From: Desulfotignum sp. | GTDB lineage: Bacteria > Desulfobacterota > Desulfobacteria > Desulfobacterales > Desulfobacteraceae | DNA: 43,377 bases | Reading direction: 5' to 3' | Assembly (NCBI GenBank): GCA_018399285.1 | Contig: JAGYOW010000026.1 | Location: 1-43,377 of the forward strand | Shown: piece by piece, positions 20,294 through 28,059 of the stretch | Layout: each line of letters begins with the position of its first letter | Numbering within the stretch: position 1 is the stretch's first letter | Notes under the pieces: generated by a model | The model's input: the letters and a program-made list of their open reading frames with translations, nothing else | What the model was told of the DNA's origin: nothing | The model's database searches: none | Position numbers and translations under genes: made by a program

Positions 20294-22305
20294 AACGGAC
20301 CTCCCTGTCCGACCGCCCCGTTGAACAGGGCATCCAGGGCCATGGCAATCACCGGGGCACTTTTGGACGGGTGACAAAAATCTGCCAGGTCTCCAGGGGT
20401 TTTCCCGCGATCATTTCAGCTGTTTCCCGGCAGGTTTGCTCAAAGGCACCCAGATCCTTTATCAGGCCTTTGTCATACGCATCGCTGAGTCAGGGCCGTG
20501 GCCATGAATCCCCGGTAAAACGGATCCAGCAGAAGGGTCTCCACTTTCTGAATCAGCATATTTTCCGAAATATGACACTGGCAGGGAAGGTCTTCGGACA
20601 AAAAGCTCATGCAGGAAATCCCCCTTTTTTCCAGGCGCCGGAAAATATTGAGGTCGGACGTGATGCCGTTTTGCTTTTTGACGGCCTCTGTCACGGCCCG
20701 GTGAACCGCTTTGCCGATCAGTTCCCCCAGCGGGTGTGCCCGCCGGCATTGTCCAGGACAGCCGGGCCGTGGCCCTCCACCACCAGGATGTTGTCTGTGC
20801 CCGTGCCCGTGGCCCGGTACCGGCCCTGTGCATAACTGGACCGGATATCCAAGTCCAGCAGGGCTGCGGTTTTTCCTTCCGTGGCAGTGATCATGGCCCG
20901 GGCCATGGCCGGGGGTCAGGCGGTGACTGGTCATGATGATCACATTGATGGTGCCGGGTTCATAGAACTCCCCGGAATCCCGGGAGGTCCGCATGGCATT
21001 GCCGTCCACCCCGGCCGTGGCAAACACCGTGACCGCGATCTCTTTGAACCGTTCCTGTGCCGCACTCAAATGATCCATGTCTGCGCCGGTGAACAGAAAA
21101 GCCGTGGTGTCCGGCGCCAGACCCAGCACATCAAACACCTGGGTTTTCAAAACTTCCAGCCCCTGGTCATGGACCAGAAGCCAGGTTTCCGGAGGGATAT
21201 AATGATTTCCGATGGCGGTAACCCCGTGCTTGAATCCCTCCAGCGTGGAAAGAACCGACATGGGGCGGTCCAGCTGGATCACCAGAGATTTGTTGATAAA
21301 ATCAAGGATCCGGCTCTGCTTGACCGCCGCCGCCTGCACATAGGAAATATCTGTTTGCATGGGATTGCTTTGCGTCACCTGATTTTTTTGAAGCAGGGTG
21401 GGCTCATCTGCCAGGGAACTGCCGTGGATGGTGGCAAAAAGCCGTTTGACAAACTGTCCGGAATGGATGGATGCCCGGCAGGTCAAATCACAGGGGAAAT
21501 AATAGATTTGGTTGTTTTTCACCGCATCCACATCCTTCCATCCGGGAAGGGAAAAAAACCGGTCCGCTGCTTCCCGGTCGCTGCCGCATCCATAAATCAC
21601 CTGGGGATTGAAATCAGTCCACTGATCTTTGGATACCGGCACCACCGCACCGGTGCCAAAGTCCGGGGGAATGCCCCCGGCCAGGGAGATCATATGATTC
21701 TGGAATGAATCCCTGCCCGGGGTCATGATCTGTTCTCTTCCCATGAGCCGGATCACCCGTTTGGGGGAGAGATCCGCTTTTCTCATTTTGGCGGTGACCC
21801 AGTCCAGGTCCGCTTTGATTTCAGCCACAAGGTGCCGGGCGTTTTCCTGTTTTTCCACCAGGTCTCCCAGCCGCAGCACCGTGTCCAGACTGTCCTGAAG
21901 GGTCTGTGTTCCGGCATGCACCAGAGGAATATCCCGGGGCAAAAAAGAGGACAATGCCTGTAATTGAAACGGGTCATAAAAGACCAGGTCCGGTTCCAGG
22001 GCTTCAATGGCGGCCGGGGATGGAAAGGAAAATCCGCCCACCAGGGTTTTCCGGGCTGCATACCAGGGCCGGGTGGTATGATAGGTAATGCCCTGGACCG
22101 AATCCTGTGCGCCCAGTGCAAACAGCATTTCCGTGATTGACGGCACCAGGCTCACAATGCACTCCGGTTTTTTGGTGAACTGAACCTCATTGCCGGTGCC
22201 GTCGGTAAACCGCAATTCATTGCAGAACCCGGGGGCAGATCCGAATATCCATGCGCTGATCAGGATTCCCAGCAGCGCGGTGAGGCAGACATGACAAGAT
22301 CTCAT
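20290..22305 (-). pseudogene. BtuF-like binding protein fused to CbiZ adenosylcobinamide amidohydrolase, frame-disrupted
   Basis: About 670 residues. Start chosen at the ATG at 22305, which overlaps the btuB stop as ATGA and opens a signal peptide (MRSCHVCLTALLGILISA). Residues ~30-310 are a BtuF-type binding domain (CIVSLVPSITEMLFALGA, VFYDPFQLQALSSF). The C-terminal half is CbiZ: KHGVTAIGNHYIPPETWLL, FATAGVDGNAMRTSRDSGE, and TGTGTDNILVVEGHGPAVLD. CbiZ removes the lower-ligand arm of adenosyl-pseudocobalamins so that the corrinoid can be rebuilt. A signal peptide would put CbiZ in the periplasm, which is unusual. Shifts lie near 20910, 20730 and 20490; the last frame ends SAPVIAMALDALFNG and overlaps the next gene as ATGA. 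Confidence 0.82.
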
Positions 22306-24272
22306 AACAATCGCCATTTCAGACCGATATATCCGGAAAGGCCCGGGGTGGCATAACTGAAGGCATCTTCGTAATATTCGTCAAACAGGTTGTCCACCCG
22401 GGCAAAGATCTGGAACCGGTCCGTGATGTCACAGGATCCGGACAGGTTCACCACGGTATAGTCATCCAGGGTGTTTGCCGGAAGGCCGTCCTTGTCCATG
22501 GCATAAGGAGAGGCATCCCGTTCGCCCACCCACCGGGCATCCATGCCCACCTGCCATTTTTCCAGAAACCGGTAGGACGCCGTCAAACCCACCTGGTTTT
22601 CAGGACGCCGGACCAGGCGGTTGCCTTCGGGGTCTTTTGTATGGGTATAGGTATAATTGAGGTTGAAAAACAGATCCTTGACCGGTGTCCAGGCAGCCGA
22701 CACTTCCACCCCCCGGGTTTCGGTGTCCCCTTCAAGCTGATTGTATTTTGAGATGAGCATGTCATAATCGATGCGGTTTTCAAAATCCATTTCCCAGTAG
22801 CTCACGCCCAAAGTCAGGTGATCATCCAGAAACCCCTGTTCCACCCCCAGGTCCCAGCCCCGGCTTTTTTCAGGTTCAAGATCCGGGTTTCCATATTCGG
22901 AATAAAGTTCATACAGGGACGGGGATCTGAAACCGGTGCCGAAACTGGCTTTGAGACGGGTATCGGTGGACGGAATCTCATAGGCGGGTGCGATTCGGAA
23001 CGTGGTCTTTCTACCAAAAGACTGGTGATCATCCAGCCGGGCTCCGGCGATTAACACCAGGTTGTCTCCCAGAAAGAGCTGATCCTGAAGCCAGTAGCTC
23101 AGGGTGTGGGTGTCAATATCAGACACCCCGCTGCTCAGGCTTTCCATGGCTTCGTTGTAATATCCGGCGCCCAGAGACAGCACATGGGTGTCAAAATTCA
23201 TGTTTCCCTGCCAGGAAAATTCGTCGGAGTCTCCTTTGTAGTCATACCAGGGCAGGTTGTCGTTGTCGTATGCCTGACGGTCATTTCTGGTAAATTCATA
23301 GGAAAAAATAGATTGAAAGAAGCCTTTGGCAAGCCAGTTGTTGATTTTGAATTGTCCGATCAGTTGTTCTGATTCAGACCGTTTATGCGTGGGGCCGTCC
23401 GGATTCGGAATCGGATCCTTCCACCATTCATCAGTGGGGATGAAGTTGTCTCCAGTATATCCCCCTGCAGAATCATCCAGATCCACCTGTGCATCCACAT
23501 ATCTCAAGCTGGATGACAGGGTGAAATCGTCATTGAATTCGAATCCTAAGTTGCCGGAAAGCGTGAGGTTCTCGTACCCGTCTTTTTCATCGGTGTTGCC
23601 GTCCTGGGGGATGCGGGGGTTGTCTTTGTCGGCAATGGAAAACCCGTCCCGGGACAGATAGGAGCCGGATACGGCATATGTGAGCTTGTCTGTGGCACCC
23701 GAGGCATGGCCGCCGGTTTTCCAGGTGCCGTAGGAGCCGCCTTCCACGGAAGCAATGATCTCAGGGGCTTTGCCGCCTTTTTGGGTGATGATGTTGACCA
23801 CGCCGGCCGTGGCGTTGCTGCCGTACATCACACTCATGGCACCTCTGACCACTTCGATGCGTTCCACCTGATCCAGGTTGATATCGGAAAGATCAGCAGA
23901 CCGGTTGGCACTGGACGGATCATTGAGAACAACGCCGTCCAGCATCACCAGTGTATTTTTTGAGTCCGCTCCCCGGATGAACACGGATGCGGAAGTTCCC
24001 ATACCGCCGGTGGATGTCACAAATACACCGGGCACAGTTTTGAGAAGTTCCAGCACGGTATGGGGGTTTTTTTCTTCAATCTCTTTGGCCGTGATCACGG
24101 TGACGCTGTTGCCGCCGATTTTTGCTGAAGTGGTTTCGGTCTGGGTTACTGAAACCACGACCTGATCCATGGTGGTCACCGCTTCATCTTCTGCCTGGCC
24201 GGCGGAAACGCCGGTGATTGCCGTCATCCAGAAAACAGCGATGATCACCAGGTACATCCCTTTTTTTTTCAT
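22302..24272 (-). CDS. btuB: TonB-dependent outer-membrane cobalamin receptor
   Basis: 656 residues. Signal peptide MKKKGMYLVIIAVFWMTAITG...SAGQA. A TonB box-like stretch (MDQVVVSVTQTET) follows, then the plug domain with ADSKNTLVMLDGVVLNDP and IERIEVVRGAMSVMYGS-like text, then a 22-strand barrel with DPEKSRGWDLGVEQGF-type receptor sequence (here LEPEKSRGWDLGVEQ). It ends in a C-terminal barrel strand, GYIGLKWRLL. The cobalamin substrate is inferred from the riboswitch in its leader and the Btu/CbiZ genes behind it. First gene of the operon. Confidence 0.93.
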   Translation of the reverse strand: MKKKGMYLVIIAVFWMTAITGVSAGQAEDEAVTTMDQVVVSVTQTETTSAKIGGNSVTVITAKEIEEKNPHTVLELLKTVPGVFVTSTGGMGTSASVFIRGADSKNTLVMLDGVVLNDPSSANRSADLSDINLDQVERIEVVRGAMSVMYGSNATAGVVNIITQKGGKAPEIIASVEGGSYGTWKTGGHASGATDKLTYAVSGSYLSRDGFSIADKDNPRIPQDGNTDEKDGYENLTLSGNLGFEFNDDFTLSSSLRYVDAQVDLDDSAGGYTGDNFIPTDEWWKDPIPNPDGPTHKRSESEQLIGQFKINNWLAKGFFQSIFSYEFTRNDRQAYDNDNLPWYDYKGDSDEFSWQGNMNFDTHVLSLGAGYYNEAMESLSSGVSDIDTHTLSYWLQDQLFLGDNLVLIAGARLDDHQSFGRKTTFRIAPAYEIPSTDTRLKASFGTGFRSPSLYELYSEYGNPDLEPEKSRGWDLGVEQGFLDDHLTLGVSYWEMDFENRIDYDMLISKYNQLEGDTETRGVEVSAAWTPVKDLFFNLNYTYTHTKDPEGNRLVRRPENQVGLTASYRFLEKWQVGMDARWVGERDASPYAMDKDGLPANTLDDYTVVNLSGSCDITDRFQIFARVDNLFDEYYEDAFSYATPGLSGYIGLKWRLL

Positions 24273-24351: not shown

Positions 24352-24414
24352 TCCCTTTTTAACACAAGATCTTGAACAGATTTTTTCTTGTCCGCGGAAA
24401 AAATCTTCAATCAC

Positions 24415-24577
24415 CCAGGCAGGTCTTCTGACTCACGGATCATCCTACTGGCCGCGTCTTCCCATACCATCATGGCACAGTGACATTATTGCGGCGGTGG
24501 TCCCCGTTTACAGCGGCGGGCCCGTCCCTGACTTTCACAGGGTTCCCTTTCAAGCTCAAAATGAGCACCTTGATGCT
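24415..24577 (-). promoter_or_regulatory. Cobalamin riboswitch controlling btuB operon
   Basis: Read on the minus strand it has the family blocks in order: GAAAGGGAACCC, then a GTGAAAGTC stretch, CCCGCCGCTGTAA, GTCACTG, a TATGGGAAGACG stretch, and the closing GAGTCAGAAGACCTGCC near 24420. It is in the leader of btuB on the same strand, 140 bases before its start codon. It senses adenosylcobalamin or a related corrinoid and turns the operon off when the vitamin is plentiful. Confidence 0.93.
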
Positions 24578-24584
24578 GGATGAT

Positions 24585-24613
24585 TATCTATTGTGTCATG
24601 TTTTTTTTGTCAA
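24585..24613 (-). promoter_or_regulatory. Promoter of the btuB operon
   Basis: TTGACA (24613-24608), a 17-base spacer, then TAGATA (24590-24585) on the minus strand. Transcription would start around 24577, right at the beginning of the riboswitch. Confidence 0.65.
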
Positions 24614-25073: not shown

Positions 25074-26282
25074 ATGAAAATACTCCCAATGAACACCCTG
25101 TCAGCCAATCCAACCCGAGATCCTTTTCAAAAAAAAGGCACCGGCCTGTCAACCAACAATGTGCAGCTCATGCCGTCAATAGATATGCCGGGCCTGTCGT
25201 GTGAATCGGAACAAACCCGCCCGATGGCGGCCTATGACAGACCCGGATATGAATTGTGCCGTTATGTGGACCATTTCATGGAAACCGATGCCGGTCCGGT
25301 GCCGGTGATCCGGCCGGATCTGGATAAAAAAGACCGGCTGTCCACCCTGGCCGTCCGATGCGGCATCCGGCGGGACAAGTATCTGGTGAGCCCCGGCATT
25401 TACGGCATCGGATCACCGGATCCGGATTCAGACGTGCTGGTGACCGCTAACTATAAGCTGACTTTTGATCATCTGCGATCTGCGTTAAGGGGCATCAGCG
25501 CCTGGATTCTGGTGCTGGATACCCGCGGGGTGAATGTCTGGTGCGCAGCAGGGAAAAAAATTTTTTCCACTCAAGAACTGGTCAACAGCATCCAGGCGGT
25601 TCATCTTGAAAAAGTGGTGGCCCATAAACGGGTGATCGTGCCCCAGCTGGGTGCCACCGGGGTATCTGCCAGACAGGTGAAGGCCCAGTCCGGTTTCCGG
25701 GTGGTGTATGGGCCGGTGCGGGCCTGTGATATTCCGGAATTTCTGAACAAGGGGAAAAAAGCGGACAAACCCATGCGCCAGGTCACGTTCACTTTGTTTG
25801 AACGGTTTGTGCTGACCCCGGTGGAACTGCACGGGGCTTTGAAGATATCCGGTATTGCCTCCCTGGTGCTGTTTGTGCTTTCAGGTATCGGCCCGGGGAT
25901 ATTTTCGTTTCACGGGGCCTGGGAAAGAGGACTTATGTCCCTGTCCGCCCTGGTCACTGGACTGATTTCCGGTGCGGTGTTGACCCCGCTGCTGCTGCCG
26001 TTTATCCCGTCAAAAAAATTTGCTTTCAAAGGCATTCTCATGGGAAGTGTGTGCGGCCTGTTGCTGCTGCCTTTGATTTGGGATCATATCGGCAGCATGG
26101 CCGGTGCCGCAGCCCTGGTTATCTTCAGTGTGATGGTCAGTTCCCATCTGGCCATGAATTTTACCGGTGCCACTCCGTTCACCTCCCCGTCCGGGGTGGA
26201 AAAAGAGATGAAACAATATATTCCCGTGCAGGTGACCGGCATACTGGTGTCTGCCGGGTTTTGGATTTACAGTGCATTCTGA
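25074..26282 (+). CDS. hgcA: Mercury methylation corrinoid protein HgcA
   Basis: 402 residues. The diagnostic cap-helix motif NVWCAAGK is at 154-161; Cys157 is the residue that would coordinate cobalt from below and give methyl transfer to Hg(II). The soluble corrinoid domain covers ~55-235 (RPGYELCRYVDHFMETDAGP, SPDPDSDVLVTANYKLTFD). Five membrane helices follow at about 257-280, 287-311, 319-338, 342-362 and 384-401. It carries an unusually long, polar N-terminal extension of ~50 residues; the ATG at residue 51 is an alternative start. It acts at the inner membrane with HgcB. Intact frame. Confidence 0.97.
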   Translation: MKILPMNTLSANPTRDPFQKKGTGLSTNNVQLMPSIDMPGLSCESEQTRPMAAYDRPGYELCRYVDHFMETDAGPVPVIRPDLDKKDRLSTLAVRCGIRRDKYLVSPGIYGIGSPDPDSDVLVTANYKLTFDHLRSALRGISAWILVLDTRGVNVWCAAGKKIFSTQELVNSIQAVHLEKVVAHKRVIVPQLGATGVSARQVKAQSGFRVVYGPVRACDIPEFLNKGKKADKPMRQVTFTLFERFVLTPVELHGALKISGIASLVLFVLSGIGPGIFSFHGAWERGLMSLSALVTGLISGAVLTPLLLPFIPSKKFAFKGILMGSVCGLLLLPLIWDHIGSMAGAAALVIFSVMVSSHLAMNFTGATPFTSPSGVEKEMKQYIPVQVTGILVSAGFWIYSAF

Positions 26283-26315: not shown

Positions 26316-26603
26316 ATGCAGGATTTCAGATATCTGGAAGATGTGGCCACCCTGGTGCTGGATGAACAAAAATGTATCGGCTGCGGGTTGTGCACCGAAG
26401 TTTGTCCCCATGCCGTGTTTGAGATACAGGAAAAAAAAGCGCGGATTGTTGACTTCAATGCCTGTATGGAATGCGGGGCCTGTGTCAGCAACTGCCCGGC
26501 AGATGCCATATCGGTCAGTCCCGGGGTGGGGTGAGCCACCTATATTATCCAGGTCTGGATAAAAGGTAAGGAAAACGCCTCCTGCGGGGACGGCTGCTGC
26601 TGA
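26316..26603 (+). CDS. hgcB: HgcB ferredoxin-like protein with in-frame TGA (probable selenocysteine) at codon 73
   Basis: Partner of HgcA in mercury methylation. Start ATG at 26316 behind AAGGAG. Two 4Fe-4S motifs: CIGCGLCTEVCPHAV (20-34) and the HgcB-type CMECGACVSNCP (50-61). Codon 73 (26532-26534) is TGA. The frame then runs on as ATYIIQVWIKGKENASCGDGCC and stops at 26601. This restores 95 residues ending in the vicinal Cys94-Cys95 pair of the family. The TGA falls exactly where known HgcB proteins have the conserved Cys73 in a PGVGC context. A SECIS-like hairpin follows directly. I read codon 73 as selenocysteine. A Cys-to-stop mutation or base error is the alternative, giving a truncated 72-residue protein. 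Confidence 0.85.
26532..26571 (+). promoter_or_regulatory. SECIS-like hairpin behind the hgcB TGA codon
   Basis: Following TGA at 26532-26534, positions 26545-26551 pair with 26556-26562 (7 bp) around the tetraloop GGTC (26552-26555), and 26538-26541 pair with 26564-26567 below a small internal loop. The first loop G lies 18 bases after the TGA. In E. coli fdhF the same GGUC loop within AGGUCU sits at 19 bases. No bulged U like that of fdhF is visible in the stem. Part of the stem also follows from coding Ile-Gln-x-Trp-Ile, so the match is strong but not proof. Confidence 0.7.
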
Positions 26604-26706: not shown

Positions 26707-26874
26707 ATGCTGGAAACAATTATTGTCGGTGTCATGGTTGCCGGTGCCGATATTACCTGTACCGTCAATTCAGACGAACCGCCTCTGCGGATGGGATGTC
26801 GCAGTTGGGGGATGTGACGGTTGCTCCTGCGGCTCAAAACGGATGCGAATCCTTTGTACCCAAAAAAGTGTTGA
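26707..26874 (+). pseudogene. FeoB-associated Cys-rich membrane protein, frame-disrupted
   Basis: An excellent AAAAGGAG ribosome site precedes ATG 26707. The pieces MLETIIVGVMVAGA, YYLYRQFRRTASADGMSQ and GGCDGCSCGS, then KTDANPLYPKKC, lie in successive frames and join to a ~57-residue protein: one membrane helix followed by a basic stretch and a cysteine-rich tail. This is the pattern of the small proteins usually encoded behind feoB. Three apparent single-base losses, near 26747, 26808 and 26836, break the frame. It is over 11 kb from feoAB here. Confidence 0.75.
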
Positions 26875-26977
26875 AATAAGACCGGCCAAAGCAATTGAAT
26901 TCCAGGAATTGCCTGTCAAATGCTTTTTTGAATTTTTAAGATAATTGATAAACCGTGTTTAAAACCATGCGGTTTTT

Positions 26978-27068: not shown

Positions 27069-27758
27069 CTATTCTTTCATGATTTTTATGACCCTTTCAT
27101 CTAAGCAGGAGCGTAGAAAGGTATTCATTGGTTTTTGATTACCTGTTTGATAAAAATCGAGCATCAATTGATTAAACTCCAATTGTCTTTTCGCAGGAAG
27201 ATTGATCGCAGGGTATCCGCAACTCAACAAGAGTCCATTCATGATAAAACGCCCCATACGCTTATTGACATCATAAAAAAATTGGCATCTTGCCATGGTA
27301 AGAAAAAAATGGATCGCACGATCGTAAATATCGGGCATGCTGTGTGAGTCATCCACCATTTTTTCAAACAAATCCGGTAGCGAATCCGCCTGGGGGGGCA
27401 TATAGTCTGTCCCTGCTATGGTAACCCCGCCAGATCTAAATTTTCCCCAATCCAATGCCTCGTCCTTACCCGCGATGCGATGGAGTGCACAGACTTTTTC
27501 ACAGGTGATTTCAAACTGATTTTTATCAATCCACCCAAATAACGTGCGCCATGTATCGGCTTGGTTCAATGCTATTTGCTGGTCAGATAATTTATGTCCT
27601 CCAACGGTAATGCCATCAAGTAATGTCTGGATTTCCGGAAAGGTTAAATGAATCCCTTCCAAATTAACTGCGTCACATACAAACTCAGTTAGTTGGCGCT
27701 TCGCAAGCATTATTGCTTTTGCTTTATTTGGTTTCATGTCCCATTTCGTTTCATTCAT
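27069..27758 (-). CDS. Fic-family protein with altered active-site motif
   Basis: 229 residues from the ATG at 27758; a longer reading adds 64 residues without Fic similarity. The Fic core motif HxFx(D/E)GN(G/K)RxxGR appears at 159-170 as QFFYDVNKRMGR: Asn, Lys-Arg and Gly-Arg are kept, but the catalytic His is Gln and the Gly is Val. An N-terminal NLEGIHLT segment (32-39) resembles the inhibitory-helix region. Fic proteins usually transfer AMP to target proteins; this one may be inactive or use another chemistry. The gene is visibly richer in A+T than its neighbours and is flanked by a riboswitch remnant, which suggests acquisition. Confidence 0.75.
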   Translation of the reverse strand: MNETKWDMKPNKAKAIMLAKRQLTEFVCDAVNLEGIHLTFPEIQTLLDGITVGGHKLSDQQIALNQADTWRTLFGWIDKNQFEITCEKVCALHRIAGKDEALDWGKFRSGGVTIAGTDYMPPQADSLPDLFEKMVDDSHSMPDIYDRAIHFFLTMARCQFFYDVNKRMGRFIMNGLLLSCGYPAINLPAKRQLEFNQLMLDFYQTGNQKPMNTFLRSCLDERVIKIMKE

Positions 27759-28059
27759 TTCACACACCGACGTAATTATGGAGTATAGGTTTCGAACGGC
27801 TGAGGTCAGCCGCGATATCCGGATGCAACCGGATTGTTCCCGCCCAGCATAGGCAGCTGCCTCGCCTCGTAGGGGCTGCTGACCCGGGCTGTTCCCGCCG
27901 CATTGCTGCGGAAGTAATGAAGTATACAATTTTTTTCTGAATAACTCCACCTGATAAATGAAAACCTGAAGATGAGGCCCTCAGGGTCGGTGGTCACGAT
28001 GGAAGTAAAGCTGTTTTTCTCTGAGCAGCGCAACCGAAGCAGCTGAAGTTCCGTTTTTT
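27759..28059 (-). other. 301-base stretch without a supported gene
   Basis: Between the Fic-type gene and the RND pump. Several short inverted repeats (for example around AGGTCAGCCGCGATATCC and GGGCTGCTGACCCGGG) are visible near 27800-27900. An open frame from a GTG at 28066 overlaps the RND stop but has no recognisable content. I see no promoter I would defend. Confidence 0.5.

What the first reader, a model, noticed from the sequence alone, without database searches (positions are those of the whole stretch)
26316..26603. HgcB with probable selenocysteine in place of conserved Cys73
Seen: the hgcB frame has one TGA, at codon 73, followed by 22 more sense codons with conserved HgcB-like content, ending in Cys94-Cys95 at residue 95. 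Known: HgcB proteins carry a conserved cysteine after the second ferredoxin motif (Cys73 in strain ND132 numbering) and a vicinal Cys pair at the C-terminus, and mutagenesis in ND132 pointed to these cysteines as important for methylation. Inference: UGA is read as selenocysteine. A selenolate binds Hg(II) far more strongly than a thiolate, so Sec at this site would bear directly on how mercury is captured and passed to HgcA. Automatic annotation would report a truncated HgcB here. The frame around it is clean, and the disruptions that can be traced base by base in this window are single-base losses, not substitutions.
Basis: partly seen in the sequence, partly recalled or inferred. Interest (0 to 1): 0.96.

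Follow-up and report, generated by a model that had tools for sequence, protein, structure and literature searches.

The report
Selenocysteine form of mercury-methylation protein HgcB
This bacterium's gene for HgcB, a ferredoxin needed to make methylmercury, carries an in-frame UGA that is very likely read as selenocysteine at a position where other HgcB proteins have a key cysteine; dozens of relatives carry the same UGA, and a selenocysteine form of HgcB has already been predicted in print.

Summary
hgcB (26316-26603) has one in-frame TGA, codon 73, and the frame goes on to a terminal Cys-Cys; read through, it matches the whole HgcB profile. In 73 hgcB loci (window plus 72 relatives) 52 have TGA at this codon and 21 TGC/TGT. 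A bacterial-SECIS-like hairpin (7-bp stem, GGUC loop, 17 nt after UGA) follows; it is predicted at the same place in 55 of 55 distinct Sec-type genes, with three isoleucine codons frozen while neighbouring third positions drift. The genome has tRNA-Sec, selA, selB and a selD that itself has an in-frame TGA. Error, pseudogene and true stop are strongly disfavoured; there is no protein evidence.

It is not new as a kind: a 2026 review lists HgcB with Sec motif GVGU, citing Haft and Gwadz 2023. Added here: 50 Sec rows form one HgcA clade without a Cys row; all 8 HgcB-bearing genomes sampled in the window's family have it, and 7 in six other families of the order; only 1 of 115 HgcB-bearing genomes in a phylum-wide sample does. 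One Sec hgcB sits beside a Cys-type hgcA, suggesting a second gain or transfer. Tighter mercury binding by Sec73 is inference.

The parts
26316..26603 (+). hgcB, 95 residues with likely Sec at 73; ends Cys94-Cys95; ordinary TGA stop at 26601-26603
   Evidence: NF040864 128.1 bits over its 99-bit cut-off, model 1-93/93
26532..26534 (+). in-frame TGA, codon 73, in the place of conserved Cys73 (motif GVGU)
   Evidence: same codon TGA in 52 of 73 loci, TGC in 15, TGT in 6
26538..26567 (+). predicted bacterial SECIS hairpin: lower stem 26538-26541/26564-26567, upper 7-bp stem 26545-26551/26556-26562, apical loop GGUC 26552-26555, 17 nt after UGA
   Evidence: RNA fold; fits the published bSECIS limits visible in PMC13188914; same hairpin place predicted in 55 of 55 distinct Sec-type genes
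25074..26282 (+). hgcA, 402 aa corrinoid protein with NVWCAAG motif; its cysteine codon is TGC, not TGA
   Evidence: NF040863 417.5 bits; motif codon
24790..25056 (+). ArsR/SmtB-type regulator upstream of hgcA, possibly same operon
   Evidence: NF033788 69.6 bits, cut-off 55; a relative of it lies upstream of hgcB on the same strand in 33 of 72 relatives' loci by my count

Best explanation
The UGA at codon 73 of hgcB is very likely decoded as selenocysteine, by SelB and tRNA-Sec acting on the predicted SECIS hairpin that follows it, to give a 95-residue HgcB with Sec where most HgcB proteins have Cys73. Shown by sequence: the in-frame TGA, its recurrence at the same codon in relatives, the coding-type evolution after it, the frozen hairpin sequence, and the genes for Sec insertion in this genome. 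Inferred: that Sec is made in the cell. Inferred from published work on the Cys form: residue 73 is essential for mercury methylation and was modelled as the acceptor of methylmercury handed over by the C-terminal Cys pair (PMC7305189, passages). A selenolate there would be expected to bind Hg(II) or methylmercury more tightly and exchange faster than a thiolate. That last step is untested, and a redox role toward the nearby [4Fe-4S] cluster is also possible.
For: Codon: 52 TGA, 15 TGC, 6 TGT in 73 loci. Downstream selection: in 55 distinct Sec-type genes codon 84 is Gly 55/55 with GGA 30, GGC 15, GGT 8, GGG 2; codon 83 Lys 55/55 with AAA 34, AAG 21; codon 74 Ala 55/55 with four codons. Hairpin: Ile77 ATT 55/55, Ile78 ATC 55/55, Ile82 ATA 55/55, although hgcA frames of the Sec loci use ATT 628, ATC 557, ATA 350; in 43 Cys-type genes the same codons vary. 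Residue 80 is Val 55/55, which supplies the GGU of the loop; in Cys types the commonest codons there are Thr ACC 8, Thr ACA 6 and Val GTC 6 of 43. For the window 0 of 200 synonymous recodings folded as stably; the mean over the 55 genes was 0.059. Loop GGUC is the same as that predicted for the SECIS of E. coli fdhF, whose sequence was confirmed in E. coli records. Machinery: tRNA-Sec 76.9 bits (cut-off 47; ARAGORN agrees), selB 345.6, selA 598.7, selD 373.5 bits with its own in-frame TGA. All 15 genomes with TGA73 in the order sample have selA over the cut-off. Published: HgcB listed with Sec motif GVGU.
Against: No protein, ribosome or selenium data. Against dinucleotide shuffles the hairpin is only modestly stable (z -1.05 to -1.53 by stretch folded), the stem is too invariant to show covariation, and about half of synonymous recodings keep some qualifying hairpin (0.538), as do 10 of 43 Cys-type genes, so hairpin presence alone is weak evidence. 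selA does not discriminate: 61 of 65 searched genomes without TGA73 also have it over the cut-off. The mercury chemistry is not tested by anything here.
Confidence: 0.96

Rival explanations
1. The TGA is a sequencing error or a fresh nonsense mutation; the gene is broken or the true codon is TGC/TGT.
For: The genome is a 199-contig assembly, 86.5% complete, and a small frame just downstream of hgcB is broken.
Against: The same codon is TGA in 52 of 73 loci, from many separate assemblies and including cultured isolates, with conserved sequence after it.
Confidence: 0.01
2. UGA is a real stop: a shortened 72-residue HgcB is the product, and the sequence after it is a relic or is kept only as RNA structure.
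For: UGA is a normal stop elsewhere in the operon (hgcA and hgcB both end in TGA). The strongest conservation after codon 73 lies in the hairpin.
Against: Codons 84-86, beyond the frozen upper stem, keep Gly 55/55, Lys 54/55 and Glu 54/55 with free third positions, and a Cys-containing tail is seen in nearly all Sec-type loci listed. Cys73 and at least one tail cysteine are reported to be needed in ND132 (PMC7305189 passages).
Confidence: 0.02
3. UGA is read through by another residue (Trp, Cys or Arg) through a suppressor tRNA or near-cognate reading, not Sec.
For: Nothing direct.
Against: A dedicated tRNA-Sec with anticodon TCA, SelA, SelB and SelD genes are present; the hairpin has a GGU loop at the right distance; homologues have Cys, the usual counterpart of Sec, at this column.
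Confidence: 0.01

Closest known systems
Sec-containing HgcB (NF040864, motif GVGU) of Haft and Gwadz 2023, as listed in review PMC13188914
   Same: Same protein family and same motif GVGU, hence the same residue. Only the review's table row and passages were seen; the 2023 paper is not held.
   Different: Nothing that bears on kind. This is one more gene; whether it is the listed WP_250697400.1 was not checked.
Cys-type HgcB of Pseudodesulfovibrio mercurii ND132
   Same: Two CxxCxxCxxxCP motifs, residue 73 about 12 residues after the second, C-terminal Cys pair, partner HgcA (passages for ND132; here).
   Different: A TGA codon and a SECIS-type hairpin stand where ND132 has Cys73; residues 77-82 are IIQVWI in 55 of 55 Sec types. 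ND132's own DNA was not fetched.
E. coli fdhF, formate dehydrogenase H selenoprotein gene
   Same: In-frame UGA followed by a hairpin with a predicted GGUC apical loop.
   Different: Unrelated protein; stem sequence and length differ.

Membership tests
HgcB (NF040864) | profile score over the curated cut-off across the full model | tested here: met
   128.1 bits against 99, model 1-93/93, with TGA read as a residue
HgcB (NF040864) | two CxxCxxCxxxCP cluster motifs | tested here: met
   CIGCGLCTEVCP and CMECGACVSNCP in the translation
HgcB (NF040864) | strictly conserved Cys about 12 residues after the second motif | tested here: inconclusive
   column present and aligned, but the codon is TGA; Sec is the proposed substitute
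HgcB (NF040864) | one or more C-terminal cysteines and an hgcA neighbour | tested here: met
   Cys94-Cys95; hgcA directly upstream
bacterial selenoprotein | in-frame UGA opposite Cys in homologues | tested here: met
   52 TGA, 21 Cys codons in 73 loci
[quoted passage not shown] a further condition in that legend was cut off in the passage and not seen) | tested here: met
   loop 4 nt GGUC, stem 7 bp, 17 nt; a prediction, and only for the conditions seen
bacterial selenoprotein | selA, selB, selC, selD in the genome | tested here: met
   all four over their cut-offs
bacterial selenoprotein | selenium or Sec found in the protein | not testable with these tools
   needs 75Se label or mass spectrometry

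The most novel reading that the evidence does not exclude
Sec73 is a selected, heritable upgrade of the methylmercury-acceptor site, gained more than once: kept without a seen reversal in one hgcA clade, and gained again, or transferred as hgcB alone, into a Cys-type hgcA lineage (L073). If so, the selenium status of sediment would directly modulate methylation in these bacteria, a new link between the selenium and mercury cycles.
Probability: 0.3. Interest if true: 0.65.

Novelty: already known. Interest (0 to 1): 0.4.

Why it matters
HgcAB makes the neurotoxicant methylmercury, and Cys73 is the HgcB cysteine outside the clusters whose single loss abolished activity in ND132 (PMC7305189 passages). 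A natural Sec at that site would be a built-in probe of its chemistry and would tie mercury methylation to selenium supply in a group of Desulfobacteraceae-type bacteria. Gene callers that stop at UGA would shorten these hgcB genes. The kind is already published, so the added value here is the distribution, the frozen hairpin and the mismatch in L073.

Tried and rejected
Phylum-wide spread: besides the window's genome, five genomes in the phylum sample had a TGA inside an over-cut-off HgcB match (G226, G039, G213, G277, G265). I fetched all five; codon 73 is TGC or TGT in each, and the TGA is the ordinary stop or lies in the tail. A claim of Sec-HgcB in many families across the phylum was therefore dropped: 1 of 115 HgcB-bearing genomes. 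For the other 109 I rely on the tool's count of stops inside the match. A 39-base pattern search over the same number of genomes found it in G000 alone, 1 of 395, and none for the reversed control pattern in G000.

selA as a discriminator was rejected: 76 of 80 genomes have it over the cut-off. Covariation was not counted, because the upper stem hardly varies.

HgcA with Sec: in the 69 of 73 loci where the script found the NVWCAA motif, its Cys codon is TGC or TGT; in 4 (L023, L028, L043, L089) it was not found, though tblastn finds an HgcA in L028 and L043.

Recombination inside L073's hgcB: the first 72 codons do not decide whether it belongs with Sec or Cys types (AU p 0.52 for one clade with L073); mean DNA identity of that part is 61.1% to Sec and 60.8% to Cys types, while codons 74-88 are 85.2% to Sec and 58.5% to Cys types. 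The latter is expected from the hairpin constraint alone. Transfer of a short 3' piece, transfer of the whole gene and independent gain all remain open.

No structure prediction was run; the published HgcAB model was used instead.

Rows set aside: of 80 loci, 72 were used; L091 (degenerate), L094 (partial, also TGA) and L092, L093, L095-L098 (other ferredoxin-like frames without the motif) were not counted. L143, L144, L155, L156 gave no motif match. There, five loci lacked a usable HgcA and 14 were duplicates, leaving 93 rows of 116 loci. Four long-branch rows were dropped. selA was searched in 80 of the 97 HgcB-bearing order genomes.

Papers: PMC13188914, PMC11588087, PMC7305189, PMC10778597 and PMC12013277 were seen as passages only; PMC12013277 does not mention HgcB. 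PMC4195725 was seen in listings only.

Full report
1. The observation. The frame at 26316-26603 reads 72 sense codons, TGA, 22 sense codons ending Cys-Cys, then TGA. Read through, it matches the curated HgcB model over positions 1-93 of 93 (128.1 bits, cut-off 99), and the gene before it is hgcA (417.5 bits, cut-off 275). Upstream of hgcA is an ArsR/SmtB-type regulator.

2. Recurrence. A scan of species genomes found 134 relatives and kept the best 80. In 72 of these plus the window, the codon after the GVG (once GGG) motif is TGA in 52, TGC in 15 and TGT in 6. The query was a Sec type, so these proportions lean toward Sec. Two less biased samples follow. In 395 genomes drawn across the phylum, 115 have HgcB over the cut-off; 6 of the 115 have a TGA inside the match, and only the window's own genome has it at codon 73 (pattern search agrees). 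In 242 genomes of the order, 97 have HgcB over the cut-off; 18 of these have a TGA inside the match, and 15 of the 18 have it at codon 73. Of 10 genomes of the window's own family in that sample, 8 have HgcB over the cut-off and all 8 are TGA73; the other 7 TGA73 genomes lie in six other families of the order.

3. Coding after the TGA. Among 55 distinct Sec-type genes, codons 74, 76, 83 and 84 keep one amino acid in 55 of 55 while using two to four codons each; codons 85 and 86 keep theirs in 54 of 55. This is how translated sequence evolves.

4. The hairpin. Directly after the TGA the RNA is predicted to fold into a 7-bp stem with loop GGUC, 17 nt from the UGA. The bSECIS conditions visible in PMC13188914 (legend passage) are a 3-9 nt loop, a 4-16 bp upper stem, a G in the first two loop positions and 16-37 nt spacing; these are met. 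A further condition was cut off in the passage. In 55 of 55 Sec-type genes the predicted loop lies at the same place; the loop is GGUN in 54 and AGUU in one. The isoleucine codons that form the stem are ATT, ATC and ATA in 55 of 55 each, although hgcA frames of the Sec loci use all three freely (628, 557, 350). The third base of codon 80, unpaired in the loop, varies (GTC 46, GTT 7, GTG 1, GTA 1). Cys-type genes vary at all these codons. For the window 0 of 200 synonymous recodings folded as stably, and on average 0.059 over the 55 genes. Limits: shuffled-sequence z is -1.05 to -1.53, 10 of 43 Cys types also meet the loose hairpin rule, and on average 0.538 of synonymous recodings do. The freeze of codons, not the presence of a hairpin, carries the argument. 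The Sec rows are related, so the 55 are not independent; but other third positions in the same genes have diverged. E. coli fdhF is predicted to have the same GGUC loop.

5. The machinery. The window's genome has tRNA-Sec (76.9 bits, cut-off 47; ARAGORN anticodon TCA), selB (345.6), selA (598.7) and selD (373.5), all over their cut-offs, and selD itself has an in-frame TGA. selA is over its cut-off in 15 of 15 TGA73 genomes but also in 61 of 65 others searched.

6. History. On an HgcA tree of 93 rows (51 Sec, 42 Cys by their hgcB), 50 Sec rows form one supported set (SH-aLRT 99, quick tree) with no Cys row inside; one Sec row, L073, lies among Cys types. Holding all Sec rows together is rejected (AU p 0.002, 89 rows, four long branches dropped). 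The first 72 residues of HgcB cannot decide L073's place, nor do they reject one Sec clade. The simplest reading is that Sec-HgcB was gained, or moved without its hgcA, at least twice. L073 comes from a metagenome assembly, and a chimeric contig cannot be excluded. If real, it suggests that Sec-HgcB needs no special HgcA.

7. Mechanism. Published work on the Cys form, seen as passages: Cys73 to Ala abolished methylation in vivo; single changes of Cys94 or Cys95 had no effect and the double change cut it by 95%; Cys73 was modelled about 13 A from the nearest iron of cluster B and proposed to receive methylmercury from the tail pair. A selenolate in that role would be expected to bind more tightly and exchange faster (general chemistry, recalled). 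This is the likely meaning, but nothing here tests it.

8. Novelty. PMC13188914 lists 'Mercury methylation ferredoxin HgcB, NF040864, GVGU' with reference 63, which is Haft and Gwadz 2023, and PMC11588087 says that some hgcA and hgcB homologues may be selenoproteins, citing the same paper. The 2023 paper was not available. Four library searches pairing HgcA, HgcB or HgcAB with selenoprotein or selenocysteine terms listed 1, 3, 3 and 0 papers, none of which is by title or abstract start a protein-level study of Sec in HgcB. The finding is therefore a correct rediscovery.

Noticed in passing
24401-24587 (-), 22302-24272 (-), 20473-22317 (-): A cobalamin riboswitch (116.2 bits) lies ahead of a divergent pair: a TonB-dependent receptor and a fused periplasmic-binding/CbiZ protein, suggesting corrinoid salvage beside the corrinoid protein HgcA; a relative of the receptor lies near hgcB in 6 of 72 relatives' loci, all Desulfotignum.
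   Followed up: partly
26709-26880 (+): Small Cys-containing frame after hgcB, disrupted across frames, with no Pfam match; it resembles (recalled) FeoB-associated Cys-rich proteins.
   Followed up: partly
27069-27950 (-): Fic/DOC-family protein (41.3 bits) downstream of hgcB; no match in the fetched flanks of the 72 relatives, many of which are short.
   Followed up: partly
L023:4700-5330: Sec-type hgcB in a Desulfotignum assembly with no hgcA or arsR match in the fetched locus; the upstream DNA looks (by eye) like the end of a group II intron, so insertion or misassembly.
   Followed up: partly
L049:5001-5288: hgcB with a second in-frame TGA in the tail (NASC-TGA-DSGCC) besides codon 73; either a second Sec or an error.
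   Followed up: no
L133 (G265): Cys73-type hgcB whose tail has an in-frame TGA followed by a Cys-ending stretch; a possible Sec in the tail, or a plain stop.
   Followed up: no
L144 (G558): Cys73-type hgcB with TGA at a cluster-ligand position of the first motif; error or unusual cluster ligand.
   Followed up: no
L091:677-937: Degenerate second hgcB-like copy in the Desulfotignum assembly that also gives L019.
   Followed up: no
L016 (G000:C167:38527-39453): The window genome's selD has an in-frame TGA (GAG-U-AAK), so it looks like a selenoprotein gene itself.
   Followed up: partly
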